Below are positions 41,671 through 63,560 of a DNA stretch of 64,000 bases, one piece after another (position 1 is the first letter of the stretch; every line of letters begins with the position of its first letter). The stretch spans positions 337,835 to 401,834 of the forward strand of contig BCKC01000011.1 of assembly GCA_001600455.1 (NCBI GenBank). The letters run 5' to 3'. The notes beneath the pieces were generated by a model. The model ran no database searches and was not told the origin of the DNA. It saw only the letters and a program-made list of their open reading frames with translations. The position numbers were made by a program, and so were the translations under genes. This stretch comes from Endocalyx cinctus (lineage: Eukaryota; Ascomycota; Sordariomycetes; Amphisphaeriales; Apiosporaceae).

Positions 41671-44600
41671 ATGGTCGAGCTACCCGACCCCACGAGTGAC
41701 CTCGACTGGAGCGGCTACATCGGCGCAATCCACGAGCACTTTTACAAGAATGCTCTCGCACACCCTTCCCGGGCTTGTGTCACGGAGACCAAGAGCTCGA
41801 CGTAAGACAGCCAGCTAGCTGCCTTGTGAAAAAAAAAAAAAAAAACACTTCTAGCTCCCGCTGCTGACTTCCATTCAGGTCACCGACAAGAACCTTCGAC
41901 TATCGCCAAATATCCGAGGCTGCCAACACAATCGCTAATCATCTTCACGATGCTGGCATCACAAACGGAGATGTGGTCATGATCTTCGCGAACAGAACCG
42001 TAGAGCTGATCTGCGCGTTTATGGGCGTTTTGGTGCGACCTGCCATACCTGTTTCAATTGAACTTGACTGACCGAGATTTGCAGGCTGCCGGAGCTACCG
42101 TCACAGTCCTGGACCCGCTGTACCCCCCGCAAAGGCAGCAGGGTAGGCATGAATTGCCTCATTCTTGCTGAAGCAGTTCGACTAACGGGTGATAGTCTAC
42201 ATCGAATCGTCCCAACCTAAGGCCATGATTTCGATCGGCAAGACCATCGACGAAAATGGGTTCGTTCGTTCCGTGCCTGTGTTATCGCAAATAAGCCCCA
42301 ACTTCCTTCTCCTACCAATCACCGCCAGATCTCAACAATTCTCCTTGCTAATATTGTCATTTTCAGCCCTCTTGCTCCTCTCGTACAAAAATATGTCGAC
42401 GAAGAATTATCTCTCAAGACCCAGATTCCCGAGCTCCGCATGAGTGACGACGGTATCCTATTCGGCGGAAAGAAGGATGACGTTGATATATTCGACGCGG
42501 TGCGGTCCAAAGCCTCATCTCCCCCCGACGTTCTTGTCGGCCCAGACTCCGTCAGTGTCATGTCTTTCACTTCCGGATCAGAGGGAAGGCCCAAGTGCGT
42601 GTTAGGGCGTCATTACAGCTTAGCAAAATACATCCCCTGGATGGCGGAGCGCTTCAACCTCTCAGCAGATTCGAAGTTCGCTTGTCTTAGTGGAATTGCC
42701 CATGATCCCATTCAGCGAGGTAAGGCTTGTCAGTATCGGAATGTTCCTGCCTCAACTTACATCTTTACACAGACATTTTCACACCTTTGTTCCTCGGTGC
42801 TCATCTATTGATCCCGGCCAAGGAGGACATTGCCCACGAGAAGCTGAGCGAGTGGATGCGAGAATGGTCGCCGACCGTTACGCATTTAACACCTGCCATG
42901 GGAAATGTACTTGTGGCAGCGTCTAGCACCAAGTTTCCCGCTCTCCGGCATGTCTTCTTTGTCGGCGATGTTCTCACCACTCGCGATTGCAAGGCCCTTC
43001 GGCAGTTGGCGCCAGCATGCCGCATCGTGAATATGTACGGAACCACCGAGACGAGTGAGTAGTCCTGAATCGACTCTGCGAATGAGAATAACTAACAGTT
43101 ATACCGTAGGTCGAGCGGTTTCTTATTTTGAAATTCTTTCGGCGGAAGAGGATCCCGCTGCTCTCGACTCGCTTGGGGACACCATTCCCGCGGGTTGGGG
43201 TATGCAGAACGTTCAAGTTCTTGTCGTATCTCAGGAGGATCACAGCAAGATGTGCGGCGTTGGAGAAGTTGGAGAGCTGATGATAAGAGCAGCTGGGCTT
43301 TCGGCTGGTTACCTCAACGACCCCGAGAAGAACAAGGAGAAGTTTCTCGATAACTGGTTTGTCGATAACAACAAGTGGGTTGAGGCTGACAAGGCCAAAG
43401 ACAAGGGTGAGCCATGGCGCGCCTTCTTCAACGGAGTTCGTGACAGGGTCTATAGAACGGGAGACCTTGGCCAGTATCTTCCCTCGGGAGCCGTACGCGT
43501 ATCTGGCCGAATCGACTCTCAAGTCAAAATTCGCGGTTTCCGGATTGAGCTCAACGAAATCGATGCTCATTTAAGTGGCTGCCCCCTGGTACAAGATTGC
43601 AAGACGCTTGTGAGGAGGGATGCCCACGAGGAACCCAAACTTGTCAGCTATATTGTCCCTGACATGGCAGAGTGGAAGCGCTGGTTGGACGCCAATAATC
43701 AGGAAGACGTTCAGGACGAGGGTATTGCGATAGGGCCTGCCGTCGTTTACCTCAAGAAGTTTCGTGCCCTTCAAGCAGTTGTTCGTGACCACCTTAAGCA
43801 TCGTCTTGCGTCGCATTCGATACCCTCAGTTTTTATTATGCTACAGAAATTACCCCTCAACCCGAACGGCAAGGTGGACTCCCCGAATCTGCCCTTTCCC
43901 GATACAACTGAAATAATGGAAGAGACCTCGGAAGAGGATCTAAAGAGCTGGGAGGCCCTATCCGAGACAGAAAAAGCCATTGCCTCGCTCTGGTCAACTC
44001 TTATCCCAGGTCTCAATGCCAAGACGCTCAGGTATGTGATGAAAGTATTCGACGCCTTTTTACAGATGAACAGAAAGCTGATCTAAGCATAGACCCGAGT
44101 CGGACTTTTTCGACTACGGTGGGCACAGCTTACTCGCCCAGCAAATGTTGCTGTCTCTTCGGAAGGAGTTGAATGCTGATATTCTTATTGGCGTTCTTTA
44201 CTCCAATGCGACACTGCGGGGTCTGAGCAGCCAGGTTGACCATCTCCGCAGTGGCCAGGCCGTCGAAGAAAAGAAGGAAACCGAATCAATATACGCTAAA
44301 TCATTGGATGAGTTGGTGAAGACCTTGGACGAAAAGTACCAGACGGCAGATCCAGATTCCCTGAGCCCGTCAAGCGGTGCCACGTTCTTCCTTACTGGTG
44401 CTACAGGTTTCTTGGGCGCGTACCTAGTCAAGGAAATCTTGGAGAGGAAGAACACCAAGCTCATTGCTCACATCCGTGGAGCGAAAGATACTGCTTTTGC
44501 TAAGGAGCGCCTAGTAACGTCCCTTAAGGGTTATCTACTGTGGCAGGACTCATGGGAAGATAGAATCTCGTGTGTTCTTGGCGACCTATCCAAACCTCGC

Positions 44601-45641
44601 CTTGGACTTGATGATGCTAGTTGGAAGCACATCGCCGAAACAGCCGATGTTGTGGTACACAATGGTGCTTACGTCCACTGGATTGCCCGATACGAGCAGA
44701 TGCTGCGCAGTAACGTACTATCCGTTATTGATGCAATGAAGCTCTGTAATGAGGGCAAGCCTAAGCTTTTCTCCTTCGTTTCGTCCACTTCGACTCTAGA
44801 TACCGATTACTACTATAACCTCTCAAGGGACCAGGTCGCCATCGGTCGCGGCGCGGTGCTTGAGTCAGACGATATGGAGGGCAGCCGTTATGGTCTTGGC
44901 ACTGGTTACGGCCAAACCAAGTGGGTTTCCGAGCAACTGGCTCGCGAAGCTGGGAAGCGTGGTCTCCGTGGCTCTGTTGTCCGACCAGGATACATCCTCG
45001 GTGGTCGCAGTGGTGTTTGCAACACGGATGATTTCTTAATCAGGCTCTGCAAGGGCTGTGTTCAGTTGGGTGCTAGGCCACGTATCATCAATACTGTTAA
45101 CGCCATCCCGGTTGACCACGTCGCCAAGGTCGTCATTGCCTCGGCCCTGAACCCCCTGCCCGGAGTAAACGTCTGCCACGTCACCGCACACCCGAGACTG
45201 CGCATGAGCGAGTTCCTCTCGGCGCTAAACTACTACGGCTACGACGTTCCTGAAGTCGACTATGAAGAGTGGAAGACGCAGCTCGAGCAGTTCGTCTTAG
45301 CGGGTTCGGTTGAGAAGGATCAGGAGCAGAGTGCACTCATGCCGTTATTCCACATGGCCACGTCCGATCTGCCCTCAACAACGCGCGCCCCTGAACTAGA
45401 CGATAGGAACGCCATGGCCGTCCTTAAAGGCGACGCTGATCGATGGACGGGCGTTGACGATAGCGCTGGCGAGGGCGTGACGCGCGAGGATATTGGAAGG
45501 TATCTGAGATTTTTGGCGACGATCAAGTTCTTACCTTTCCCGACCAGTCGGGGACGCGAGCTGCCGCCCATCTCAGCCGATATTGCACAGGCTCAAGTAC
45601 AGTGGGGTGTAGGTGGTCGTGGTGGAACCACTTCATCGTAA
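41671..45641 (+). CDS. LYS2-like alpha-aminoadipate reductase (A-T-R), lacking the usual N-terminal region
   Basis: Exons 41671-41801, 41879-42032, 42085-42142, 42196-42259, 42367-42719, 42773-43054, 43110-44031, 44093-45641; 3513 nt, 1170 residues. The enzyme family activates L-2-aminoadipate with ATP, loads it on a carrier and reduces it with NADPH to the semialdehyde. A domain about 1-600: T-S-G-S-E-G-R-P-K core, A-H-D-P-I-Q-R and G-T-T-E-T-S; the G-V-L-G-R-H motif is C-V-L-G-R-H here. T domain Ser667 in G-G-H-S. R domain from about 745: G-A-T-G-F-L-G cofactor motif and Tyr927/Lys931 in Y-G-Q-T-K. LYS2 proteins are usually about 1400 residues with about 200 extra N-terminal residues, so this one begins directly at the A domain. 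It stands in the SwnK neighbourhood and is likely a cluster paralogue, though it could be the genome's only copy. Confidence 0.93.
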
Positions 45642-47228: not shown

Positions 47229-48680
47229 ATGATTTCCAAAGAGAGTGTTAGATGTCACCCTACGTGGACCCAAACCGGTTCAGACACGTATACCCAACCG
47301 TATGGCTTTCAAGAGGTCCTCTACAATGCGATATCAGTTCCACCCGGCTCACCCGGGCTTTTCCTAATAGGCACAGCCGTCACCTTTCGCTATGTACCTT
47401 CTAATCCGGATTCCAAGAAAGAGCCCTCTCAAGACCTTGTGCATCTGCTCCGCCGTGCATGGCTGCAACTGCGACAGAAATATCCAGGATTAGCCGCTGA
47501 GAACCTAAAGCATGGAAAAGTCTATAGATCACCATCGTCGGCCGCCGAGCTAGAGGCATGGCTTAGCTCCACATTCATCGTAAAGCCTGGAATGTCAGTT
47601 TCGGAGTACTGGAGAACCTTAGTCAAGACAAGGCAGATGACTATGATCTATTTTCCCGATACGCACGAGTTGTTCCTGCAAGGGGAGCATCACATTCTAG
47701 ACGGGAGAGGTCTCATGAACTTCTGGGATCGTTACTTCAAGGCGCTCACCTCTCCCTTGAAGATAGTGGACCTCATGGTGACGGACGGGTCGGAAGCCTC
47801 ACGTCTCCCCCCTCGGTCCGACGACCTCCTCGATACAGCGGAGAAAGCACCGGGTCGCGGAGAGAAGCGCGCGCAAGAAATCCTCGCCCCGCTCTCCGCC
47901 ATGACCTCGCCGATCAACATGCCCGTAGCCAACGCCCTCGCGCCCTGGTCTCGCGAGAACGAGTTCGTCGAGACCAAGATCGACGCGCGAGACGCGTCTC
48001 CGATCTTCGCCGCCTGCAAAGCGCAGGGTCTCAGCGCCACGGCCGCCTGGCACGCCGCCATCGTCCTCGCGACGCGCGAGATCCAAAAAGCAGCTAAAGA
48101 CGTCCCCGTCGGTACGGAATTCGCGACGTTTGGAAACTTCGATCTCCGGCGATATTTCCCCGCGCCGGACGAGACCTCGCCGCCGGACGCGTACTCCCTG
48201 AGTAACCACCACGCCGTCCTACCTCACGTGACGAGGCCCGACGGCAAGACCTTCGCCGAGATATCGCGCGAGCTGGCCGGCTTTTACAGGCAGGACCTGC
48301 CCGAGGCGGATCCGGAGGTGTGGAGCGCGCTGGGGCCCATGATCCGCTCGATGGTGCCCGAGTTCACGCGGGCGCAGCTCGAGGAGACGACGCCGGCGAT
48401 ATCGAGCTTGGGCGCCGTCGATAATTTCATCGGCTCGTCTTACGCCGACGCCGACGGGAAGGGGGCTTGGCAGATCGAGGACGTGTGGTTTTCGGATACG
48501 GTCACGGGGCCGTGGATGGAGTGTTTTATGTGGACGTGGCATGGGCGGTTGTCTTTGACTACGTGCTACAATCCAGCTTATTATACGCGCTCGGGGGTCA
48601 CCGAGTTTAATAAGCTGACGCTGAAGAAGTTGATGGATGGTCTAGGGATTGCGGAAGGGCTGTCGAAGCCTAAGCTCTGA
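47229..48680 (+). CDS. Acyltransferase / condensation-fold protein (Tri3-like or related)
   Basis: Single exon, 483 residues, no signal peptide. The H-H-I-L-D-G motif (H154-x3-D158) is the catalytic HxxxD of CoA-dependent acyltransferases and NRPS condensation domains, and spacing and length fit a stand-alone two-lobe enzyme such as the trichothecene 15-O-acetyltransferase type. A second-lobe D-F-G-W-G type motif is not obvious; W-x-S-x-T (W-F-S-D-T) near 425 may correspond to it. GC content is clearly above the neighbouring intergenic DNA. It is followed tail to tail by the PhyH-like gene (101 bases between stops). A role as an acylating or acyl-removing tailoring step in the SwnK-type cluster is inference. 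Confidence 0.8.
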   Translation: MISKESVRCHPTWTQTGSDTYTQPYGFQEVLYNAISVPPGSPGLFLIGTAVTFRYVPSNPDSKKEPSQDLVHLLRRAWLQLRQKYPGLAAENLKHGKVYRSPSSAAELEAWLSSTFIVKPGMSVSEYWRTLVKTRQMTMIYFPDTHELFLQGEHHILDGRGLMNFWDRYFKALTSPLKIVDLMVTDGSEASRLPPRSDDLLDTAEKAPGRGEKRAQEILAPLSAMTSPINMPVANALAPWSRENEFVETKIDARDASPIFAACKAQGLSATAAWHAAIVLATREIQKAAKDVPVGTEFATFGNFDLRRYFPAPDETSPPDAYSLSNHHAVLPHVTRPDGKTFAEISRELAGFYRQDLPEADPEVWSALGPMIRSMVPEFTRAQLEETTPAISSLGAVDNFIGSSYADADGKGAWQIEDVWFSDTVTGPWMECFMWTWHGRLSLTTCYNPAYYTRSGVTEFNKLTLKKLMDGLGIAEGLSKPKL

Positions 48681-48781: not shown

Positions 48782-49639
48782 CTAACAGTAAACCTCCTCA
48801 GCTTCAGCGTAATTTCGTTTCCAGACCCCCGGACTATCTTTCAAAAATTGTGACCGGAACCCAACCATACGCTGACCCCGCGGCGTAAGCGTCTTAGCTA
48901 CCTCTTTATCCAAAATGAACGGATACGCCTCTTCGGGGGTGAGATACGAGCACTGGAAAACCAGAGTTATGGCCCTCCTCGTAGAGTCTTTCGTCCTATT
49001 CTCACCCCCACCATGAACGACTTTTCCGGAAATGAAGCAAGCGTCGCCGGGATCCATCTCCGCGGCGATACTATCCTCAGGCTTGCCGTTCTCCTCCAGA
49101 TTCGCCCACCTGTGGCTCCCGGGGATGACCCTCGTCGCCCCGTTCTCGTCGCGGAACTCGGACAAGGCCACGACGAAGTTGACGCTGGCCTCGGGCGCGT
49201 CCGGCCCGCAGTGCGTGAAGATGGGGAACTGCCACTGGTCGCGATGGAGCGGCTGCGCCGCGCTGGAGGGCCCGATGTCGATCACCTGGGCCGAGTTCAT
49301 CCAGTACCCGCCCGCGTCCTCGAGGTAGATGGCTTCGCAGACCTCGTGGATCAGCTCGCTCTCCAAGATCTCGTGGCGGAAGGTCGAGCTCAGGGCGACC
49401 ACGCCGTTTAAGCGCTTGGTGTTGTAACCGAAGAAGTCCTTGACCCACTCTTCGGCGTGGTTGGAGCCGACGCCTAGCTTGTCGATGGAAGGTTGAACTT
49501 CTTCGTTTAGACGACGGACTTGGTCTTTGGTGAAGAGACCCTTGATAATGACGGCACCATCCTCGCGAACGGCTTTGAGTACGGCATCGCGGCCTTGGGA
49601 GGCTTCGATACGCTGTAGCTTGGGTGCAGCTGGAGACAT
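48782..49639 (-). CDS. Phytanoyl-CoA dioxygenase-family Fe(II)/2-oxoglutarate oxygenase (SwnH-type candidate)
   Basis: Single exon, 285 residues. Double-stranded beta-helix oxygenase: metal-binding H132-R-D134 in P-L-H-R-D, distal His209 in G-K-V-V-H-G-G, and a 2-oxoglutarate-binding Arg in S-T-R-R-A (221/222). Such enzymes hydroxylate unactivated carbons with O2 and 2-oxoglutarate. In described swainsonine clusters, two enzymes of this family (SwnH1, SwnH2) hydroxylate the indolizidine ring; one homologue is visible here. I cannot say which of the two it matches. It lies 616 bases from the NmrA-like gene on the same strand. Confidence 0.9.
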   Translation of the reverse strand: MSPAAPKLQRIEASQGRDAVLKAVREDGAVIIKGLFTKDQVRRLNEEVQPSIDKLGVGSNHAEEWVKDFFGYNTKRLNGVVALSSTFRHEILESELIHEVCEAIYLEDAGGYWMNSAQVIDIGPSSAAQPLHRDQWQFPIFTHCGPDAPEASVNFVVALSEFRDENGATRVIPGSHRWANLEENGKPEDSIAAEMDPGDACFISGKVVHGGGENRTKDSTRRAITLVFQCSYLTPEEAYPFILDKEVAKTLTPRGQRMVGFRSQFLKDSPGVWKRNYAEAEEVYC

Positions 49640-50255
49640 GGTGGTAGGAGGATAGGAACGAAAAAAAGTGGTTCTTGATATGAGTTATTGGTAATACGAA
49701 AAAGCAAATCATATGCGGATCATGTTGACTCGCTCCCACCGCCATTGTCTAGAGAACGAAATTTATATCACTCATACATGGATTGACAGCCATGAATCAA
49801 GACTTGGGTGTGCGATAGTCTATCATGCATTCCCCACCAAAATCATGTCATCCCACGTATATATCTCGGCACCTGTAAATTTCGTATACTGCACTGTGCC
49901 ACATGAACGCTTGCGAGCATCGTAACTGCCGGAGTATCGCAGCCGGAGGAGTGAGAATGAGTCATCCTGTTCGCCAATCTCGGCACCGAGTCCACTTCAC
50001 CTGCGGTCTGTATCCTCGTACGATAAATGGGTACTTTGTGAAACTATCGAGATCCGCCGGACCTCGAGGGTGTGGATGAGCCTCGTATGGATATACACTA
50101 TGATCTACTAAGTGCATTAATGTATGTACGTGTATAGCAAACAAGCTGACAGGAGCTTGGCTGACAGGCACTAGCTTTCTAAAACCCTGCCGTCACCCCT
50201 GCCCTTGTCCCCGGTCATAACCCCTGCATATGCACTTCCCATTTACGTGCTGACA
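49640..50255. other. Intergenic between PhyH-like and NmrA-like genes
   Basis: No gene supported. Contains the PhyH-like promoter (minus strand, reading left from about 49640) and the NmrA-like 3' end. Confidence 0.5.
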
Positions 50256-51301
50256 TCAGCCCGCTTTCCATCCTTCCTCAATCACATCCTCGATCTTTTT
50301 CGGCGCAGGGACCTTTCCCTCGAAGGTCTTGACCAGGTCTAGGTATCCACCCAGCTGCTCCAGATCATACGCGCCAAGAGCGACGCCAGCCTCGAGATCA
50401 GCAATAAGCGCTCGCAGCGCCTCGGCCCCTAGACGGAACTCCTTCGCGATCTCCACGTTGGTTGGGAGATCCGCGACGGTCTCGTGCTTGAGCAGGTTTT
50501 CGACCGGCTGATAACGCACGTCGAGCTTGCGACCCAAACTCTTCTCGATCAGCCCGACGAGCTCGTTTAGCGTCACGGTGCTGACCGAGGTCCTCATGAT
50601 CCGCGGCCACGCGTCCAGCTCGAGCGCCAGCGCTATGTACCGCGCGACGTCGGTCGTGAACGTCATGCTCATCTTCGCTTCCCCGTCTCCCGGCAGGACC
50701 GCCTGCCCGTTCGCCGGGTCGACGAAGAAGCAGAGCTGGCGAAGGCTGCTTTCCACGCGGGGCAGGCCGAAGTAGTCCATGAACATGCCCGGGTAGATGT
50801 ACGTGTACTCGAGCGTCGTGGTTTTCTCCAAGGCTCGCCTGCCGATCTGGTGATACTTCTTCTCTGGGTACGGGAGCACGTCATCGCCGACGTCGTACTC
50901 GACGTTAAACTCAGAAGGGATGAATCGCCGAACGCAACCGCAATTGTCAGCAGCGCGGATAAGACGCACTTGTGAGTCGGATACGGAGTCATTATCCATG
51001 ATAAAGGTGCATATGACGATACTGACGTTATGTTCCTGCAGCTGTTGCACCAAGGAATCTTCCGAGGCGTAATCCGTCTGGATGACAGGCAGGTAACTTT
51101 TGCCGGTCCATGGCGAGACGCGACTGGGGAGCTGCTCTGGAACCTGCATTTCGAACGTAAGCAGGAATAAGGACGTGCATGGATTATCTCACTTACCTTT
51201 CTTGACATGCTATAAACCTCATACTTCCCAGTCGCTAGCAGAGCATCTACGACCAGAGCCCCGATATTTCCGAGGCCACCAGCGACTGCAACAACTGCCA
51301 T
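50256..51301 (-). CDS. NmrA-like / isoflavone-reductase-like NAD(P)H oxidoreductase (SwnN/SwnR type)
   Basis: Exons 51301-51197 and 51143-50256 (minus strand) give 330 residues. NmrA/PCBER atypical SDR: glycine-rich G-G-L-G-N-I-G (about residues 8-14), no classical YxxxK at the usual place but Lys in the active-site region Y-P-E-K-K-Y-H, and a P-S-E-F-N-V motif typical of the PCBER/isoflavone reductase group. Family members reduce imines, enones or enol ethers with NADPH. Two such reductases (SwnN and SwnR) belong to known swainsonine clusters; I cannot tell which one this is. It is divergent from the hybrid synthase gene with 1165 bases between starts, sharing its control region. Confidence 0.9.
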
Positions 51302-52466
51302 GACGTATAAGAATTCCAAAAAGAGTACAGTTTATGCGAGTTAGTCTCTGACGCCGTCACGCCTGTGGGACTTCTTGTGTGTTGGATAAATATTTTTCCA
51401 ACCGGGTCTGTTTGGGGCTGTGGTAGGTAAGGTCGGTAATGTTCCTAGTTTCTATCGAACAACAGCTTCTAAGGCCTAGGAGTATAATGATACGTGCCGT
51501 TGAAAACTGATTGGGAATTAATGGGATCTAATAACTATCCAAGATATGCCCTTGTTAGCTGACTGACTTTGTCAGCAGGGGTGTAGTCACGGAAGTCACG
51601 TGTAAACCGGAGTGAATATGATAAGTTACTTGTTTGGCGGTTATAAGGCGGTAATGAAAAAAGAAAAGAACCCCGTCTCCGGCTAAAGTATGTTCCAAAC
51701 ACTATAAATATGCTTATATTTCGTATAGCCCGTTTCGTCACCTCGCTTAGCCCTATAGTGTCACGAGTGTCGTAGGATGCTGCAACGTAATGCCAAGATA
51801 TTCGGCTCCGTCTTGATCCATTTGTCTCCTTTTTTTCTTATTTGGGAAGTTTGGCTCATTGACCCAAACTAATCATCTTATATACCCTGCGGATTGTATC
51901 ACTATATTCTACCTACCTTAAAAGATAGCTTATAACAGTGAGGTAGTATTACTATATACGTATGCGTGTTGACTTAACTAAGCTCTACTGTGCAGTTCGT
52001 ATAATATATATACGAATTCTGCTCAAGTAAGCAGGCGTATGCTCTAGTCAGGGTTCCAGACTTGGAAGAGAACAGTCGTTATGTAATTATTCCGTAGGCA
52101 TATTAGAGCGTAAAAGTGGGTTGACGAGGTAAAATCAATTAGAAATTTCGGCGTAGACACAGTACAACGGACGGAGTAATGCATGAAAAGGTCATTTACT
52201 TATCTCTAATTATTTCTCAAAGTACTTTTTATGTTGTAGTCCCGAGGGTGCCCCACCAAAAAAGAAAGGGAGGAGACGATATTCCACAATAGGTCGGACC
52301 CGTAGGATACGGACTTCTCGAGTAAGCTCCCTAAATGTGCCGTATAAAATTCTATAGAAAGAGGAACAAGTCGTGACGAAGGTGGCAGGAGTGTAAGAGG
52401 TTGAAGTGCCATCTATCATCTCATATTATTCTCATCTTGGAGAAGCAGTATCTACTACCAGAAAAT
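51302..52466. promoter_or_regulatory. Divergent promoter region, NmrA-like reductase / hybrid synthase
   Basis: 1165 bases between two divergent starts (51301 minus, 52467 plus). AT-rich with TATATATACG-like stretches near 51955 and 52005, and CGTAAA/GGTAC repeats. No specific site identified. The arrangement argues for joint regulation of reductase and synthase. Confidence 0.5.
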
Positions 52467-55400
52467 ATGATGTTTAACTCGAATAGAGACTCTCATACTC
52501 AATTCAATGAAACTGATGATCCAACAACACTGGGGTTATGTCTTCATGAGCTTTTGGAAAATGTCACGGAGAACTACCTAGATACAAAGGCCGCCTTGAT
52601 CTGTCACGACACGGAACTCACCTTTGGAGGGTTGAACAGACTGGCTAATCGTATTGCTAGAGGTCTCCTACAGCGCGGGATCTCGAATGGCGATGTCGTA
52701 GGTGTGGCTTCAGACCGCTCCGTCGAGCTCGTCGCAGTGTTGCTGGGGGTATGGAAGGCGGGTGCGATATATGTACCCATTGACCCAGATTTCCCCGCGG
52801 GGAGAATAAATCAAATGATGGACGATGCCCATCCAAAATTATTCATCACCAATGATAGCGCCAAAGAGGCGTTCTTTTCATGGAGAGATATATCCTTAGG
52901 TGTTGCAGAGGTGCTACACGATATCGATGTTTCCAATGACAGCGGCGACCTCAAAATAAAGGTCCGGAGCGACGACTTGGCGTACATAATGTATACGTCC
53001 GGTTCTACAGGAAGGCCCAAGGGTGTCGAGGTCAGCCATGGAAGTGTCTCAAATCTATTATTATCACTGAAGAAGGACCCGGGATGCAGCGAATCCGATA
53101 CGCTGTTGGCCATCACCACCATCTCTTTCGACATGGCGATCCCGGAAATATTTCTCCCACTTCTTTCCGGTGCCACAGCCATTATCGCACAGAAGAACGA
53201 AGTAAAAGATCCTTCGGCCTTAGTCAGACTAATGGAACGTCATAAGGTCACCATAATGCAAGGAACGCCCGCAATATGGCAGATGCTATTAGATTCAGGT
53301 TGGCGAGGGCAGCCGCGGCTCCAGAAGATCTTCTGTGGTGGAGAAGCACTATCACGGACTCTGGCTGATCGCTTACTGGAGTGTGGTGACATGATGTGGA
53401 ATATGTACGGACCGACCGAGGCGACGGTGTATGGGAGCATATGGAAAGTGCGCAATGGTGAAGACATACTTATTGGAAGACCTCTTTCAAATGGCCGTCT
53501 TTACGTCTTAGATACAAATATGTCGCCTGTACCATTCGGTTCTCCCGGAGAGTTATACATTGGGGGCGCTGGTGTTGCGCGTGGTTATCGCAATAATAGC
53601 GAACTTACCCGTACTCGGTTCTTGGATAACCTCTTTCATGCCGGCTCGATGTATCGGACCGGTGATCTTGCTTGTTTTCAGGAGTCTGGAGAACTGAGCT
53701 TGATGGGTCGTATAGACGGACAGGTAAAAATTCGGGGTTACCGTATTGAGCTAGGCGACATCGAAGCTGCTATTATGAAGCACGAGGATGTTTCCGGAGC
53801 AGTTGTTATTTCCCGAGATGATCGACTGGTAGCCTACTGCATAAAAAGAATAAGAACAGAGAAAAGCGAGGCCAACTTACCTATGATGCTAAATCATATA
53901 CTACGTCCCTGGTTAACTGAACGACTTCCCGCTTACATGGTACCGACATTCTTTGTTGAAATGGAAGTTTTCCCTATCACTGTAAACGGCAAGATTGATC
54001 GCAAAGCACTCCCAGATCCAGCCACGACAATCCATATTACTGCTGATATGAGACCTTCGACTGAGTTGGAAGGCGAGATACTTACAATTTGGTCGAAAGT
54101 TCTTGGGCATGACCGTATTGGTGTCGATGATAATTTCTTTGAGATTGGAGGTGACTCCGCTCGAGTTATCCGAGTACAGCATGAGCTTGAGAGAATGCTT
54201 GGCTGGCCGGTTTTATCACCGAAGTTATTTGAACACTATACGGTCAAATCCTTAGCGGCCTATTTAAGTATTCCTCATGGTGCATCTGACAAAGCTCCAC
54301 AACCTAGGGGATATCCCGTGAATAACACCGAAGATATAGCCATTATTTCCATGGCCTGTCGGCTTCCCGGCGGAATCAGTACTCCCGATGATTTTTGGGA
54401 ACTACTTGACCGAGGAGGCGACGCAATAACTGATATGCCGAAAGACCGCTGGGACGTTGATTCACTATACGATGCCAAGCCAGAGGTCAAAGGGAAATCG
54501 TATTGTCGACGAGGTGGCTTCCTTTCCTCTATCAATTCGTTTGATACATCATTCTTCGGTATATCTCCAAGGGAGGCCCAAGCACTAGATCCCGCGCAGT
54601 ACATGATGCTGGAGACTTGCTGGGAAGGGTTTGAGCGTGCAGGTTGCACTATGGATCAGTTACGGGGTAGTCAAACTGGCGTGTTTATCGGTACCAGCAA
54701 TATCCTATCTCACCAGGGTCTAAATCCAAACGCTGTTCACTTTTTAGATGAGCTAGATGGATACACTGTAACAGGGTCGGCTGGTGGGACCATGTCCGGG
54801 CGTATTTCATATCAACTGGGACTAGAGGGGCCGACGATGACAATAGACACTGCTTGCTCCTCGTCTCTCGTCACAACTCACCTGGCTTGCACTGCCTTGC
54901 GCCAGGGAGAATGCGACATGGCCATATCCGGTGGCATTACTCTTATGATGAATCCCGGTCTACATGTTGAATTTAGCCGACAACAGGGCATGTCTCCAGA
55001 TGGACGCTGTCGGGCGTTCGATGCCAACACTGAAGGGACTGGGTGGTCGGAGGGCTCAGTCGTGGTCGTCTTGAAACGGCTATCGGAAGCTCAGCGCGAT
55101 GGTGATCAAATACACGGCGTAATACGGGGCACTGCTGTCAACCATGCTGGCCGCAGCGCTAGTTTAACCACACCCCGTGGCCCTGCTCAACAGCGTCTCA
55201 TTAGTACGGCGCTGGCAGCGGCCAGGTTAGAACCTCAAGATATTGACTATGTTGAAGCTCACGGAACTGGCACTAAATTGGGCGACCCAATTGAAGCTAC
55301 GGCACTGGCTGAAGTGTTTGGTCCCAGTCGTGTCGATACTGAACCGCTATATATCGGTGCGGCTAAGTCTAATATTGGTCACACCCAAGCTGCTGCCGGT

Positions 55401-58400
55401 CTTGTAGGCCTACTAAAAGTGGTGCTATCTATGCAGCATGAAACATTGCCAGAAAGTTTACATATAGTCAAGCCTACTTCAGCAGTCGATTGGAAGGCAG
55501 CTAATTTACTACCAGTGATGAGTAAGAGGTCATGGGTGGCTCGAGAGACTCGGGTGCGTCGGGCTGGCGTCAGTGCCTTCGGGATTGGCGGCACAAATGC
55601 CCATGTCGTCATTGAAGAGCCACCAAAACAGATCCCAGTTGGAAAAAGTACGGAAACAGAAGTTCGAGCGCCGAGAATGATACCTTTCCTGTTGTCAGGT
55701 AACACTGAAAAATCATTACGTCTTCAAGCCAAAAAGCTTCATCAGCACATCCACGATACTGTTAATCAACAAAACCTTGGAGACATTGCATATTCTCTGG
55801 CCACCACTCGAAGTCACCTCCGTAAGAGGTTGGTGTTGATGGCCAGAGACAATAATGAACTTTTGCAGAAACTTGAATCAATTAGTCAGTCGGATCACTT
55901 TGAAGTGGCTCCTGCTGACTGTGGCGAAGCGCCAAAGCTAGCGATACTCTTTAGTGGTCAAGGCAGCCAGTGGCCAGGTATGGGCAAGGATATATGCGAC
56001 TCCTTCCCAGTCTTTCGCGAAAAGTTATGCGAGATCGCAGACGAGTTCACAGAGCTGGAAATACCGTTACTCGACGTGATGTGGGCGGAGCCAGATAGCA
56101 CGCTCGCTGCATATTTGAATCGAACAGATTATGCACAGCCGGCTCTTTTTGCTTTAGAAGTAGCTTTATGGCATATGTGGCAGAGCTGGGGCGTAAAGCC
56201 AGAGTTCGTCCTTGGCCACAGCCTAGGTGAGCTTGTGGCAGCTCATGTCGCGGGTATACTGGATCTGCATGATGCCTCCCGACTAGTTGCGGCTCGTGGT
56301 CGAATGATGCAAGCACAGTCTAGCGATAGCAGAATGATATCACTTGAGGCAAATCCGGCAGAGGTATCAGCTATCATTGAACAGTTCGGTTATGGTGATA
56401 AAGTCGATATTGCTCTATATAACACCCCAATGCAGACAGTGATATCTGGCGATGATCACCCTAGCCAGATGATAGAGAGTTATTTTGCTGAACAAGGCCG
56501 CAAGACTAAGACAGTGGTGATTGGGCATGCCTTCCATTCCCGCCATATGGATGGAATGCTAGCGGGTTTCCAAGACGTAGCCGAAACCATAAGATATAAC
56601 CCTCCTCAATTGTCAATCATCAGCAGTCTAGAGGGTACCATAGCCACAGCAGGACAGCTAGAAAAAGCCGATTATTGGGTTAAGCAGGCACGTGAGCCTG
56701 TTCGATTCTATGACAGCGTTCAGACATTAGCACGCCACGGGACCAACATCTTCCTTGAGCTGGGACCTAGCCAAGTGCTCTGTGGCATGGGAGCTGCAAG
56801 CCTAGTGGATAATGATAAAACAAAGTCTAACGTCTGGCTGACATCTCTCAGTCCGCACCAGAAAGACTCCTCAACTATTCAACGTAGTCTCGCAGATCTG
56901 CATGCACGGCATGTGCATATTAATTGGTCTACCCATTTCAGCCCGTTGGTTTATAAGCGGGTAGAATTGCCGACTTATGCCTTTCAACGAGACTTTCTTC
57001 AATCTCTCAACTGGCGTCGAAGTTATGCTACAAGAAGCGCCGACGAGACTGATGGTTGTGTCCCATCGGTGAGCTCAGCCGAGTCTCAGTTCGAAATAGT
57101 TTGGCATCCAGTGAAGGCGCATAGTATATGCCGAAGTAGGGCTTGGGGTATATTACATCTTGACTATGATGATGGGACGTGGTCAAACAATGTGAAGGAC
57201 ATCCTATCAAGAAATGGTATTCGAGTAGTTCAAATCGAAACTCTCGCGGATGCCGATAGTCTAGATGGAGTGCTATGTTTATGGGATTCGGATGTCGATG
57301 TTACATCGCAGACTCAGGGTACGCTAACGAGAGCATTGAGACTTCTGCAGATAGCAGCCCAAATTGGATTGATGAAGCCACTTGTATGGGCGACTCACCG
57401 TAGCATAGGTGTCAGTATTGAGTACAGCGACGCCACTATTAAGCCTGGATCTGCCCCATTGTGGGGTCTTATGCGAACTGCTAGGAACGAGCATCCGGAA
57501 TTGCAGCTGCGCTTGGTCGACTTGGACGACGAGGCAGACACCTGCGTTTTCTCGGCACTAATACTTAACGACGAACCTGAATGCGCTGTACGAAAGGGCG
57601 AAGTCCTTGTCCCGCGAATGCAGCGAATCGACTCGACGGTGAAGTCAACTGCAGCAGAAAGGATCATAAGACCAGATGGCGCAGTACTAATAACAGGTGG
57701 ACTTGGCAATCTTGGAGCACGTGTGGCTCGGTGGCTAGTTACAGAACACGAAATCCGTGATTTGATTTTGACTTCACGTCGCGGTATGGAAACCCCGGGC
57801 GCGGAGGCACTAGTCGCTGAACTTTCTAAGCTTGGGGCCAAGGTCATAGTGATGGCCACCGACATAGAGAATCCGAAAAACATCGAGCCAATCATGGCAT
57901 TATTCAACCAATCTCGCCCTCTGCGAGGTGTAATCCATGCTGCGGGCGTTGTAGACTCTGGAATTTTGTCGACCATGACAGCGGATAAGTGTGCGACGAC
58001 TCTTGCACCTAAGGTTTATGGTGCTTGGGCTCTACACCAATCAACGCAGAATATGGATTTAGATGTATTCATGATGTTTTCTTCCATATCAGGTGTTTTA
58101 GGAATGCCAGGGCTTGCCAACTACGCCGCAGCGAATGTCTTCCTCGATGCTCTGGCCCATTTACGCCGAGGGCGTGGTTTGCCGGCCACGTCAATCGCGT
58201 ATGGTACTTGGGCAGGTGACGGCATGGCATCTAGACTCAGCAGAGCAACTCAGTCTCATCTCAGCAACTATGGCCTTAAGCCTCTAGCTCCTGATATCGG
58301 ATTGGAAATATTGAAAGAGGCCGTAGGAAGTACTCGTCCGATGACTGTGGCGGCTGTCCTTGATTTAGCACGAGTTCAGCGTTACTTCGAAGAACAAGGA

Positions 58401-59999
58401 GTTATACCGCCTTTGCTTTCTTCACTATTAACTCGGGACAACGCGCAGGACTCTGATAGTTGGAATCTTCACAAGACATTAACTGAGGCTGATCCAAGGC
58501 AGCACGAAGATCTTGTAATAAATATGGTCCGGGGGGTAGTCGCTAAAGCACTGGGCTATACCAATTCTCTCGAGGTGGATATACATCGCCCTTTACAAGA
58601 CATCGGAATTGACTCCTTGACCGCGGTCCAAATGCGAAATCATTTGGCAACATTAACGGGCTTGACGCTATCTGTCAATGTCGTCCTATTACATCCAAAT
58701 CTGAAGGCTCTGAGTGAGTCGCTAGTGTCTCGGCTGCGAGACACAGATGTATCATCATCCACAACCGCCGCATCCAGCAGTGAGACTACTGCCACAACTG
58801 CAATTGACTCGCCTAGTTTGAACATGATGGCGGTGAGAAAGGGTTGTCTAGACAATAGTTTTGTGTTCGACAATGTGACACGGAACCCAAGTGCATGTAC
58901 CAGCCCTCCAATCTCCGTCTTCCTGACAGGCGCTACAGGTTTCGTCGGCGCCTTCATTTTGTATGAGCTGCTTAAGCAGGGCATAAAGACATATTGTCTT
59001 GTACGTGCTAATTCTACAGACGAAGGGCGACAACGGGTAGTGGGCAGCCTGGAGGAGTATGGCCTCTGGGAGTCCCGGTTTTCATCCCTAATTGAACCAA
59101 TAGCGGGTGATGTTTCACAACGCTTCTTAGGTTTGACGGAAGAGGTATTCGACTATTTAGCGGATCGAGTCGATGCTGTCTGTCATTCTGCGGCTCTAGT
59201 CGATTGGATGCGACCACTAGAAGATTATGTCGGCCCTAATATCGTTAGCACCCATGAGATATTGCGCCTGGCTTCTCGTGGCCGCGGCAAAGCAGTTCAT
59301 CTAGTGTCCACTATTTCGACGTTGCCCAAGCATATGGGGTTAGATCTTACTGAGGAGGATCAGGAGTATGGTTATGGAACATCGAAATATATGGCCGAAA
59401 GGATGGTAGCAGCAGCTCGGTGGCGTGGTGCCCGAGCATCCTCGTACCGCTTACCGTTCGTTGCTGCCTCAACCAAGACTGGACACTTCCGTCTCGACCG
59501 CGGTGATTTCTTACACAACTTGATAACGGGATGCCTTGAGATGGGGGCGTTCCCGTCCATAGAGGATGAAATGTCCTATGTGCTACCAGTCGACTACCTG
59601 AGTCAAACTATCGTAGCCATAATGACACGAGACTTTCATCAACTAGGACGCGACTTTGACTTTCTAAACTCTCGTGCACCAAGCTGGAGAAAATTCTTTA
59701 AATGGATGGATAAGGACGACAGGGTCAGGAATACGTTAACTTTTGGTGAATGGAAGAAGCAAGCACTGGAACATGCTGCTGCCTACCCAAACAGCCCTTT
59801 GGCTCGTATTGCGGCGGTTTTCGATGGCTACACGGACGCGACAGCGCCTGGCATGCTCAGAGGCCTTTCTGTTGGAGAAAACGTTTTGGGCGGGAAAGAA
59901 TATCCAGCGCTGCCGATTGACGAGAAATTTGCGGAGGTATATCTGAGCCGAATTGACGCCGCTATTGACGCCGCTAAGGATCCGAGAGACGGGGAGTGA
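52467..59999 (+). CDS. swnK: SwnK-type NRPS-PKS hybrid (A-T-KS-AT-KR-T-R)
   Basis: Single intron-free exon; 2510 residues from ATG 52467 (52470 is also possible). Domain order: A about 30-510 (T-S-G-S-T-G-R-P-K-G at about 173), T with Ser564 in G-G-D-S, KS about 620-1050 with Cys797 in D-T-A-C-S-S, AT about 1155-1510 with Ser1252 in G-H-S-L-G-E, KR about 1735-1930 (G-G-L-G-N-L-G; Y-A-A-A-N), T with Ser2050 in G-I-D-S, and terminal R from about 2150 (G-A-T-G-F-V-G) to 2490. There is no condensation, dehydratase or enoyl reductase domain. This exact order is that of SwnK, the swainsonine synthetase, in which L-pipecolate is loaded, extended once with malonyl-CoA, optionally reduced, released by NADPH-dependent reduction and closes to an indolizidine. 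The adenylation specificity code was not extracted, so the starter is family inference. All active residues look intact. Confidence 0.9.
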   Translation: MMFNSNRDSHTQFNETDDPTTLGLCLHELLENVTENYLDTKAALICHDTELTFGGLNRLANRIARGLLQRGISNGDVVGVASDRSVELVAVLLGVWKAGAIYVPIDPDFPAGRINQMMDDAHPKLFITNDSAKEAFFSWRDISLGVAEVLHDIDVSNDSGDLKIKVRSDDLAYIMYTSGSTGRPKGVEVSHGSVSNLLLSLKKDPGCSESDTLLAITTISFDMAIPEIFLPLLSGATAIIAQKNEVKDPSALVRLMERHKVTIMQGTPAIWQMLLDSGWRGQPRLQKIFCGGEALSRTLADRLLECGDMMWNMYGPTEATVYGSIWKVRNGEDILIGRPLSNGRLYVLDTNMSPVPFGSPGELYIGGAGVARGYRNNSELTRTRFLDNLFHAGSMYRTGDLACFQESGELSLMGRIDGQVKIRGYRIELGDIEAAIMKHEDVSGAVVISRDDRLVAYCIKRIRTEKSEANLPMMLNHILRPWLTERLPAYMVPTFFVEMEVFPITVNGKIDRKALPDPATTIHITADMRPSTELEGEILTIWSKVLGHDRIGVDDNFFEIGGDSARVIRVQHELERMLGWPVLSPKLFEHYTVKSLAAYLSIPHGASDKAPQPRGYPVNNTEDIAIISMACRLPGGISTPDDFWELLDRGGDAITDMPKDRWDVDSLYDAKPEVKGKSYCRRGGFLSSINSFDTSFFGISPREAQALDPAQYMMLETCWEGFERAGCTMDQLRGSQTGVFIGTSNILSHQGLNPNAVHFLDELDGYTVTGSAGGTMSGRISYQLGLEGPTMTIDTACSSSLVTTHLACTALRQGECDMAISGGITLMMNPGLHVEFSRQQGMSPDGRCRAFDANTEGTGWSEGSVVVVLKRLSEAQRDGDQIHGVIRGTAVNHAGRSASLTTPRGPAQQRLISTALAAARLEPQDIDYVEAHGTGTKLGDPIEATALAEVFGPSRVDTEPLYIGAAKSNIGHTQAAAGLVGLLKVVLSMQHETLPESLHIVKPTSAVDWKAANLLPVMSKRSWVARETRVRRAGVSAFGIGGTNAHVVIEEPPKQIPVGKSTETEVRAPRMIPFLLSGNTEKSLRLQAKKLHQHIHDTVNQQNLGDIAYSLATTRSHLRKRLVLMARDNNELLQKLESISQSDHFEVAPADCGEAPKLAILFSGQGSQWPGMGKDICDSFPVFREKLCEIADEFTELEIPLLDVMWAEPDSTLAAYLNRTDYAQPALFALEVALWHMWQSWGVKPEFVLGHSLGELVAAHVAGILDLHDASRLVAARGRMMQAQSSDSRMISLEANPAEVSAIIEQFGYGDKVDIALYNTPMQTVISGDDHPSQMIESYFAEQGRKTKTVVIGHAFHSRHMDGMLAGFQDVAETIRYNPPQLSIISSLEGTIATAGQLEKADYWVKQAREPVRFYDSVQTLARHGTNIFLELGPSQVLCGMGAASLVDNDKTKSNVWLTSLSPHQKDSSTIQRSLADLHARHVHINWSTHFSPLVYKRVELPTYAFQRDFLQSLNWRRSYATRSADETDGCVPSVSSAESQFEIVWHPVKAHSICRSRAWGILHLDYDDGTWSNNVKDILSRNGIRVVQIETLADADSLDGVLCLWDSDVDVTSQTQGTLTRALRLLQIAAQIGLMKPLVWATHRSIGVSIEYSDATIKPGSAPLWGLMRTARNEHPELQLRLVDLDDEADTCVFSALILNDEPECAVRKGEVLVPRMQRIDSTVKSTAAERIIRPDGAVLITGGLGNLGARVARWLVTEHEIRDLILTSRRGMETPGAEALVAELSKLGAKVIVMATDIENPKNIEPIMALFNQSRPLRGVIHAAGVVDSGILSTMTADKCATTLAPKVYGAWALHQSTQNMDLDVFMMFSSISGVLGMPGLANYAAANVFLDALAHLRRGRGLPATSIAYGTWAGDGMASRLSRATQSHLSNYGLKPLAPDIGLEILKEAVGSTRPMTVAAVLDLARVQRYFEEQGVIPPLLSSLLTRDNAQDSDSWNLHKTLTEADPRQHEDLVINMVRGVVAKALGYTNSLEVDIHRPLQDIGIDSLTAVQMRNHLATLTGLTLSVNVVLLHPNLKALSESLVSRLRDTDVSSSTTAASSSETTATTAIDSPSLNMMAVRKGCLDNSFVFDNVTRNPSACTSPPISVFLTGATGFVGAFILYELLKQGIKTYCLVRANSTDEGRQRVVGSLEEYGLWESRFSSLIEPIAGDVSQRFLGLTEEVFDYLADRVDAVCHSAALVDWMRPLEDYVGPNIVSTHEILRLASRGRGKAVHLVSTISTLPKHMGLDLTEEDQEYGYGTSKYMAERMVAAARWRGARASSYRLPFVAASTKTGHFRLDRGDFLHNLITGCLEMGAFPSIEDEMSYVLPVDYLSQTIVAIMTRDFHQLGRDFDFLNSRAPSWRKFFKWMDKDDRVRNTLTFGEWKKQALEHAAAYPNSPLARIAAVFDGYTDATAPGMLRGLSVGENVLGGKEYPALPIDEKFAEVYLSRIDAAIDAAKDPRDGE

Positions 60000-61125: not shown

Positions 61126-63560
61126 CTATTGACTAATTAGTTCCTCACTAAGTGTCTCGTACGATGAATTTCTTCCAAACGCAATTAACCACCTGGCAAT
61201 GCGGTCAGCAATAGCCATCGTAGTAATCATAGGGTTAACACCGCTTGCGGAAGGGAACACGCTCGCATCCGCCACATAGAGATTTTCTGCTTCCCACACC
61301 TTGCCACGGTCATCCACGACGCCATCTTCCGGACGTGCACTCATTCGACATGAGCCCATTTGGTGTGCGCAGCTAAAGAAATTTCCAGCTGGATTCATAT
61401 CGTCGGCCTCTAACTTTTGAAGCCACGTTACGAAGTCCTTGTCTTCCAACGTCCGGTCTTCCACAGGCCTATTATCACACTTGAAAGACGGCGCATTCAG
61501 CACGAAGGGAAACAGCTCGACTGCACCCTGGAGATAACAGAGCTTCGCGATCGCGGCCAAGCCTGAAACGATATGTCCACGGTCAAACTTAGAAGGTGAA
61601 TATGAAATAGCGGGACGCCCGTTATCTGGATCGGGTTGCACGCTTCCCGGGTCGCGGTCTCTAGCGATGGCAATGAACGAATTCAATTGCCTGAACTGTA
61701 GAGCATCAACCTTGTATTGCAGGGCGCTGTGCCACGGAATAGTAAACGCTGTCATATGAGGCTGGTCCCTTTAGTATTGATTAGTTCTGAGTATATGGGA
61801 CAATTGCGGTGCTTACCACGCAAGCCGATGTTTCGATCTTAACACCATGCCCCTTTCCATCGAGATTTTCAAATTCTGATACAACACTTGTTAAGATGCT
61901 ACCTACGAATAGTTTAAGTAGTTAGTTTTCTGTACTTTCATCTAGTAATAACGGTTTCTGGCTCACCTTCCCATGCACGGATCTCGCGGTCGAATGCAGC
62001 GACGAAGTTACCAGAGGGATGCATATGAAGATTCTTGCCGATATGTGGACTCTATTTTAAGTTTCGAGATATTAGTTTTTTTTTTTTAGTCAATCGCCAG
62101 GTTAATATTTCCACTTACTTTCAAGTCACTTCTCATCAGTAAGAGAGGAGTGTTCAGAGCCCCACAGGCCACGATAACATTCTTTGCTTGTATCTTAACT
62201 TGTCTCCGTATGCGCTTGTTTTCGAAGGCATACGGATTTTCTTCAGCGCCCCGGGAGGTCCAAGTACCAAGGATACCTGTTGCGTGCATTGGAAGCTGGC
62301 TTTCAAACAGAATCTCGGATACGTCGAGACCTTCGATAAATTTTGCACCAGCCTTACCAGCAGCTGGTAACCAACTCACAGCCGGGCCCTGTTTCTCACT
62401 GGCGCGACATCCGAAACCACAGTGCCCACAAGAATGCTCATGACCGCCAGAGTTTTGAGGACATGAGTATCCTTTCCACCCCAACTTCTCGCACCCATCG
62501 ACTAGGACTCGGTTTCGATGAGTATGGCGGATGTTAGTGGCACTCACCCCCATGAAGTCTGAAACGCGGTCTAGTGATTCTTGATACTCTTTCGTAGTAA
62601 AGAAGGACAATCCTGCTCTTGCCCATTCATCTCTCACGAAGGCTTGGGTTTGAAGGCTTGCCCCCCAATTTATAGTGCCGCCTCCTCCCCAGCAACTTCC
62701 GGCTAGGATAGTTGTAGCCCCATCCATGCTTTGGAGTCCTTTTTCGTATAGTATATCTGCATTCTCAACAGCTATGGGAAGCAGGTGAGGCGGTAAGTAA
62801 TAACCCTTGTCAACTACAATGACACGAACACCAGCCTCAGCAAGAGTTTTGGCGCACACAGCACCCCCACAACCAGAACCGACAATGACTACGTCGGTCT
62901 CTATGGTAGCAACTTCCGGAGAATCATGAAAGGTCATAAAATTGAAATCTATGACTGATCCTGGCTCGCAACTCTTATTCTCAGCTACGTTGTAATCGCT
63001 AAGTTCTAACCAAAGTTGGTCAGACTGTGACCAGCCGAGCTTGGACATGAGAAGGAATGACCTAGATAAAGCAGCCCATAGCGGGAGCCAACCATTGAGC
63101 CATGATTTGATAATTGCCTCTCGGGTCTGAACGGGTTGTTTGTCAAACGGAGACAAGTACCATGTCATTATTAGACTTCCAAGCCGTGTTCTGACTGACT
63201 AGTAAGTATTATCAGAATGATTAGAAAGATTAGGCGGGGCCTTACGAACCCTAGGAAGCTTAAAAGACTGCCCAATTTTCCTCTCGATCCGGGCGACAGA
63301 TTCTGTATGGTCTGTTCGATAATGGACTTAAACTTCTGATTTTCCAAAGGCTTGGCGCCGAGATAGTCACGGAATTGCGCTATAGTCGGTGGATGCTCCA
63401 TTCGGGTTTGAAGTGTTTTATAGGCCTGCTGAAATTCATTTGTGGATATAACCACCTGACTGCCGACTGTACCTGATTGAGGTGAGTCGGCGACTATGAT
63501 AGAAGGAACAGCAGCCTCAAGCAATGCGAACAGAACACTCCACTGCTTCTCGGTGAACAT
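61126..63560 (-). CDS. Long-chain alcohol oxidase (FAO family, GMC oxidoreductase)
   Basis: Exons (minus strand) 63560-63246, 63198-62119, 62051-61967, 61902-61817, 61761-61126 give 733 residues, normal for FAO1-like enzymes. FAD-binding motif V-I-V-G-S-G-C-G-G about residue 200; C-terminal signatures H-Q-M-G-S-C-R-M and A-D-A-S-V-F-P-S-A-S-G-V-N-P-M. Oxidises fatty alcohols to aldehydes with O2, giving H2O2; in yeasts such enzymes work in omega-oxidation at peroxisomes or ER. No obvious C-terminal SKL signal (ends I-S-Q). Placed next to the hybrid synthase, convergent with it; a role with alkaloid or lipid tailoring cannot be read. Acceptor 63199 of intron 1 is chosen by frame and conserved sequence. 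Confidence 0.92.

What the first reader, a model, noticed from the sequence alone, without database searches (positions are those of the whole stretch)
48782..59999. Swainsonine-type (SWN-like) cluster core: SwnK-type hybrid with NmrA-like reductase and PhyH-family oxygenase
Seen: a single-exon A-T-KS-AT-KR-T-R synthase, a divergent NmrA-type reductase and a 2-oxoglutarate oxygenase of the PhyH family, all within 11 kb. Known: this architecture and these partner families are those of described SWN clusters, which make the indolizidine swainsonine from lysine via pipecolate. Inference: this region makes swainsonine or a related indolizidine. The host's identity is not shown.
Basis: partly seen in the sequence, partly recalled or inferred. 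Interest (0 to 1): 0.9.

Follow-up and report, generated by a model that had tools for sequence, protein, structure and literature searches.

The report
SwnK-paralogue cluster, probably not swainsonine
This fungal gene cluster is built like the one that makes the livestock poison swainsonine, but its genes belong to a separate, still uncharacterised branch, so it probably makes a different small nitrogen-containing compound.

Summary
In detail: a single-exon A-T-KS-AT-KR-T-R synthase, an NmrA-type reductase and a PhyH-family oxygenase lie at 48782-59999. The SWN assignment fails its own tests. The synthase is 54.7-57.1% identical to 31 SwnK-clade proteins, which are 71% or more identical to each other. 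It lies outside their clade (uniting it with SwnK is rejected, AU p 0.0057). It lacks the one-residue A-domain gap present in 31 of 31 SwnK-clade sequences and 0 of 59 in its own clade. The PhyH resembles EasH (199 bits) more than SwnH1 (78) or SwnH2 (65). The trio is instead a conserved cassette: sequential locus tags in three species, and an NmrA or PhyH relative on a contig of equal length for 40 of 56 clade members against 0 of 29 SwnK-clade members. It is probably the product-unknown 'SwnK-like1' type noted in 2021. Neighbours include a Tri3-like acyltransferase and the only LYS2 detected in the genome. Best reading: a reductively released, N-cyclised, oxidised, perhaps O-acylated small alkaloid. 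Swainsonine is unlikely; an indolizidine is unproven.

The parts
52467..59999 (+). SwnK-paralogue NRPS-PKS hybrid, A-T-KS-AT-KR-T-R, about 2510 aa, single exon
   Evidence: Pfam domains, intact core motifs, clade outside SwnK, homologues
51197..51301 (-). NmrA-like reductase, exon 1
   Evidence: reading of the sequence and splice model
50256..51143 (-). NmrA-like reductase, exon 2 (330 aa in all)
   Evidence: PF05368 57.2 bits, homologues, splice model
48782..49639 (-). PhyH-family Fe(II)/2-oxoglutarate oxygenase of the EasH/AusE/AsqJ group, 285 aa
   Evidence: PF05721, PDB sequence matches, model and structural matches, conserved H132, D134, H209
47229..48680 (+). Tri3-like O-acyltransferase with HxxxDG motif, 483 aa; probable but unproven cluster member
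   Evidence: no Pfam hit over cut-off; motif; low-confidence model whose best PDB match is TRI3
41671..45641 (+). LYS2, alpha-aminoadipate reductase, eight exons; only copy detected in the genome; neighbour, probably housekeeping
   Evidence: TIGR03443 1538.8 bits against cut-off 1030.1; own-genome searches
61126..63560 (-). GMC oxidoreductase in several pieces; flanking gene, membership unknown
   Evidence: PF00732 and PF05199

Best explanation
This is a three-gene cassette of a SwnK-paralogue clade, probably the 'SwnK-like1' type of the literature, with a local acyltransferase. Shown by sequence: domain order, intact catalytic motifs, clade placement, conservation of the trio. Inferred: the A domain loads one amino acid on T1; KS-AT adds one malonyl unit; KR reduces the beta-keto group; the terminal R domain releases the chain as an aldehyde, which the free amine attacks to give a cyclic imine or iminium; the NmrA enzyme reduces it; the PhyH enzyme oxidises a C-H bond; in this genome the Tri3-like enzyme may cap a hydroxyl with an acyl group. 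The starter is unresolved: a small amino acid such as glycine or alanine, or a cyclic one such as pipecolate. The product is therefore more likely a non-swainsonine small alkaloid (hydroxypyrrolidine, or a different indolizidine or pyrrolizidine) than swainsonine.
For: Synthase 54.7-57.1% identical to 31 SwnK-clade proteins that share 71.2-95.8% among themselves. SwnK clade one side of a branch (SH-aLRT 100) and the window protein in another 26-row clade (SH-aLRT 100) of a 50-row tree; uniting it with SwnK rejected, p-AU 0.0057. A-domain gap in 31 of 31 SwnK-clade and 0 of 59 clade rows. One trio-clade member, P0107, has the glycine-type code DILQLGMVWK and an NmrA and a PhyH relative on a contig of the same length. 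Trio conserved by sequential locus tags PFICI_07789-07791, Uu.00g082070-082090, E0L32_010788-010786; same-length contig for 40 of 56. PhyH nearest EasH. No second synthase of the type found in the genome. The malonyl-type AT motif HAFH and the KR and R motifs are present (the reading of HAFH as malonyl-type is recalled).
Against: 57 of 59 clade members share Tyr at code position 331 and 53 of 59 Met at 236 with SwnK, so a SwnK-like substrate is not excluded. LYS2, which can feed pipecolate formation, lies next door. A shared contig length is only a proxy for linkage, and 16 of 56 clade members show none in the capped lists. No product has been measured.
Confidence: 0.68

Rival explanations
1. 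A divergent but true SWN cluster that makes swainsonine.
For: Same domain order, NmrA and PhyH partner families; A code shares D, M, Q, G, Y, K with the SwnK clade.
Against: Clade and AU test; identity at the paralogue level given by Cook et al. (53-55%, orthologues over 70%); PhyH not SwnH-like; a single oxygenase and NmrA reductase at the locus; conserved pairing with a different PhyH subfamily across the clade.
Confidence: 0.04
2. A pipecolate-derived indolizidine other than swainsonine, O-acylated by the Tri3-like enzyme, in the manner of slaframine (1-acetoxy-6-aminooctahydroindolizine), with LYS2 next door supplying piperideine-6-carboxylate.
For: Tri3-like acyltransferase 101 bp from the PhyH gene; LYS2 1.6 kb further on; lysine-pathway route to pipecolate from the literature (passages of PMC9854754); S. 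leguminicola has two SwnK paralogues proposed for slaframine (passages of PMC5473758).
Against: No aminotransferase recognised among the genes examined at the locus; LYS2 is the only copy detected, so it must serve lysine synthesis; the S. leguminicola paralogue held here (P0068) carries a glycine-type code and lies in another clade; acyltransferase conservation was not tested.
Confidence: 0.22
3. The trio is a unit but the acyltransferase, LYS2 and GMC genes are unrelated neighbours.
For: Only synthase, NmrA and PhyH were tested and found conserved together.
Against: The acyltransferase ends 101 bp from the PhyH stop, and its family is common in such clusters (recalled).
Confidence: 0.4

Closest known systems
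SWN cluster of Metarhizium robertsii and others (SwnK, SwnH1, SwnH2, SwnN, SwnR)
   Same: A-T-KS-AT-KR-T-R hybrid, NmrA-type and PhyH-type partners
   Different: Synthase in another clade at 54.7-57.1% identity; PhyH EasH-like; one oxygenase and one NmrA reductase; no A-domain gap
SwnK-like1 subclade of Marssonina coronaria paper (PMC7864672, passages)
   Same: SwnK architecture; homologues described as SwnN and SwnH in the flanking region; no product known
   Different: Membership not directly testable: the paper's tree and table were not available; here the PhyH is not closest to SwnH, and an acyltransferase adjoins
SwnK paralogue of Slafractonia leguminicola (P0068, 'SwnK-like protein 1')
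   Same: Same architecture, 57.9% identity
   Different: Other clade, glycine-type code DILQLGMVWK
NPS7/PKS24 hybrid of Cochliobolus and its bacterial-origin family (PMC3226686, passages)
   Same: Same fungal NRPS-PKS family, related to bacterial hybrids
   Different: No gene-cluster partners described in the passages seen
EasH, AusE, PrhA, AsqJ, FtmOx1 oxygenases
   Different: Those act in ergot, meroterpenoid, quinolone and fumitremorgin pathways (recalled), not with a SwnK-type synthase

Membership tests
SWN (swainsonine) cluster | Synthase is a SwnK orthologue | tested here: not met
   54.7-57.1% against 71.2-95.8% within the clade; trees; AU p 0.0057
SWN (swainsonine) cluster | SwnK-type A-domain pocket (code with one-residue gap) | tested here: not met
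   Gap in 31 of 31 SwnK-clade, 0 of 59 rows of the window's clade; code DMPQFGMVYK
SWN (swainsonine) cluster | swnH2, reported in every SwnK-bearing fungus of a 36-organism survey | tested here: not met
   Only PhyH gene at the locus scores EasH 199, SwnH2 65 bits. Of 11 other PhyH matches in the genome, 3 were compared with the PDB and none was SwnH-like
SWN (swainsonine) cluster | swnH1 | tested here: not met
   As above, SwnH1 78 bits; not present at the locus; 8 of 11 other genome matches not compared
SWN (swainsonine) cluster | swnN and swnR reductases | tested here: inconclusive
   One NmrA-type gene present; no SwnN or SwnR sequence was held for comparison; the genome has many other PF05368 matches
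SWN (swainsonine) cluster | Swainsonine is made | not testable with these tools
   needs LC-MS
SwnK-like1 cassette (PMC7864672) | SwnK architecture outside the SwnK clade | tested here: met
SwnK-like1 cassette (PMC7864672) | NmrA and PhyH genes beside the synthase | tested here: met
   window genes; conserved in relatives
SwnK-like1 cassette (PMC7864672) | Placement within that paper's subclade | tested here: inconclusive
   The paper's sequences and tree were not available (only passages seen)
Slaframine-type pathway | O-acetyltransferase | tested here: inconclusive
   Tri3-like fold match from a model with mean pLDDT 54.4; acyl donor unknown
Slaframine-type pathway | Aminotransferase for the 6-amino group | tested here: inconclusive
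   None recognised among the ORFs scanned, but not every ORF was scanned with profiles
LYS2 (alpha-aminoadipate reductase) | TIGR03443 over its cut-off | tested here: met
   1538.8 bits against 1030.1; profile positions 221-1389, so the first 220 are missing
EasH-type Fe/2OG oxygenase | HxD...H iron ligands and EasH-like sequence | tested here: met
   H132, D134, H209 invariant in 24 sequences; best PDB match EasH

The most novel reading that the evidence does not exclude
The trio defines a widespread fungal pathway to a small, polar alkaloid from a small amino acid such as glycine or alanine plus one malonyl unit: a hydroxypyrroline or hydroxypyrrolidine scaffold made by the same assembly logic as swainsonine, here further O-acylated. 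SwnK would then be one late, pipecolate-adapted offshoot of a family whose bacterial and several fungal members carry glycine-type codes.
Probability: 0.3. Interest if true: 0.6.

Novelty: new member of a known kind. Interest (0 to 1): 0.32.

Why it matters
Annotation by architecture alone would call this a swainsonine cluster, a claim with feed-safety weight. Sequence evidence puts it in a separate clade. If the starter differs from pipecolate, the family offers a direct test of how the A-domain pocket was re-tuned, and points to a small alkaloid shared by many Sordariomycetes that ordinary screening may miss.

Tried and rejected
LYS2 as a dedicated second copy supplying pipecolate: rejected, because own-genome searches found no other LYS2; the next best match, on C5, is an A-T-R-SDR protein at 29% identity. 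These searches score only the best candidates (40 of 79 and 15 of 72).

A bacterial source of the whole cassette: not supported. Of 34 bacterial loci with a PhyH relative, none had an NmrA match and none a synthase match beyond weak AMP-ligase similarity at 22-27% identity.

Published substrates for the clade's codes: one search of six code strings found no paper; a search of glycine codes found one, read in passages. SwnH1 and SwnH2 do not appear among the 50 rows of the structural comparison, which says nothing by itself. A Pfam call for the acyltransferase gave only sub-threshold PapA_C and AATase. A search of the GMC piece against the PDB was uninformative.

Not in print: characterised products of this clade were looked for only, in an open-licence library; subscription papers, among them Luo et al. 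2020, were not seen.

Full report
Observation. The window lies in an unnamed 44.8-Mb, 15-contig genome at C11:337835-401834. The three genes of the finding are real and full-length. The synthase has A, T, KS, AT, KR, T and R domains in one exon, with the core motifs intact.

Is the synthase SwnK? A search of a large protein collection scored 7977 candidates and listed 120. Proteins named as SwnK or from Metarhizium and Xylaria hypoxylon came out at 54-57% identity; the best hit was 69%, from Pseudomassariella vexata (Amphisphaeriales). Of the 120, 115 homologues plus the window protein were aligned (two-thousand-residue proteins plus 3 of the long bacterial ones; the other long bacterial ones were dropped). 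In a FastTree tree the smallest clade with five reference SwnKs holds 31 rows and excludes the window protein. The window protein sits in a group of 59 rows; the split has support 1.0 in the unrooted tree, the 0.265 printed after re-rooting being a misplaced label. A 50-row IQ-TREE tree (quick search, LG+G4, SH-aLRT only) gives the SwnK rows one branch at 100 and a 26-row clade with the window protein at 100; 17 of 47 inner branches are weak. Uniting the window protein with SwnK costs 141 log-likelihood units, p-AU 0.0057. Identity to the 31 SwnK-clade rows is 54.7-57.1%; their own pairwise range is 71.2-95.8%. Cook et al. report over 70% among SwnK orthologues and 53.1-55.4% for the S. leguminicola paralogues (PMC5473758, passages).

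Starter. The ten-residue code, placed by motif positions that I recalled, reads DMPQFGMVYK. The SwnK clade reads DMLQIGV-YK (28) or DMLQLGV-YK (3), with a one-residue gap in 31 of 31. In the window's clade 0 of 59 have the gap; 8 other sequences outside both clades do. The bacterial rows and S. leguminicola P0068 read DILQLGMVWK, one residue from the glycine code DILQLGMIWK of a survey (PMC12283262, passages). One member of the window's own clade, P0107, carries DILQLGMVWK and has an NmrA and a PhyH relative on a contig of the same length. Against this, the clade mostly shares Met236 and Tyr331 with SwnK (53 and 57 of 59). The window code matches SwnK and the glycine type at six positions each. 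I leave the starter open.

Conservation. Locus tags run in sequence for synthase, NmrA and PhyH in Pestalotiopsis fici (PFICI_07789, 07790, 07791), Anthostomella pinea (Uu.00g082070, 080, 090) and Thyridium curvatum (E0L32_010788, 787, 786), and for two of the three in Endocarpon pusillum, Truncatella angustata, Stachybotrys chartarum, Monosporascus sp. GIB2 and, with one tag between, Madurella fahalii. As a wider proxy I matched contig lengths across the three capped lists. Of 56 clade members with a length, 36 matched an NmrA, 23 a PhyH, 19 both, 40 either. Of 29 SwnK-clade members none matched; of 25 others none matched an NmrA and 3 a PhyH. The lists hold 120 rows each and were ranked by likeness to the window's own proteins, so the zero for SwnK shows divergence of the partners, not their absence.

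Neighbours. The acyltransferase has no Pfam match over cut-off but has an HxxxDG motif; a low-confidence model (pLDDT 54.4, 4 sequences) matches TRI3 15-O-acetyltransferase best (E 1e-15, TM 0.50). LYS2 scores 1538.8 bits. No other was detected in the genome, so it should be the housekeeping gene. Its closeness may be chance.

Literature. The M. coronaria paper describes SwnK-like1 and SwnK-like2 subclades without experimental support, with SwnN and SwnH homologues flanking SwnK-like1 (PMC7864672, passages). Our trio fits that remark. SWN-like clusters have also been reported in Xylariales without swainsonine in extracts (PMC8403587, passages). The SWN survey gives swnK and swnH2 in all 36 organisms (PMC9030584, parts 1-2 of 6).

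Verdict. SWN-like in chemistry, not a SWN cluster by descent; product unknown. The finding is a useful correction and a member of a conserved but uncharacterised cassette.

Noticed in passing
41671-45641: An eight-exon LYS2, the only one detected in the genome, lies 1.6 kb from the acyltransferase; its match starts at profile position 221, so the first 220 positions of the model are missing.
   Followed up: partly
11914-19693: Pieces of a highly reducing-type polyketide synthase (KS, AT, DH, then enoylreductase-, KR- and carrier-like ORFs by eye), with a P450 at 3692-4903: a separate cluster.
   Followed up: no
G000:C4:692169-702619 (L050, L037): Another PhyH gene, a paralogue of the Tri3-like acyltransferase and KS-AT matches with stops inside lie within about 10 kb, perhaps another cluster.
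   Followed up: no
P0004 and P0001: The synthase of the lichen fungus Endocarpon pusillum (Eurotiomycetes) is 86.4% identical to that of Pseudomassariella vexata (Sordariomycetes), with an adjacent NmrA tag; horizontal transfer or contamination.
   Followed up: partly
L063-L096: Actinobacterial and Burkholderia loci encode PhyH relatives at 46-52% identity without synthase or NmrA partners.
   Followed up: partly
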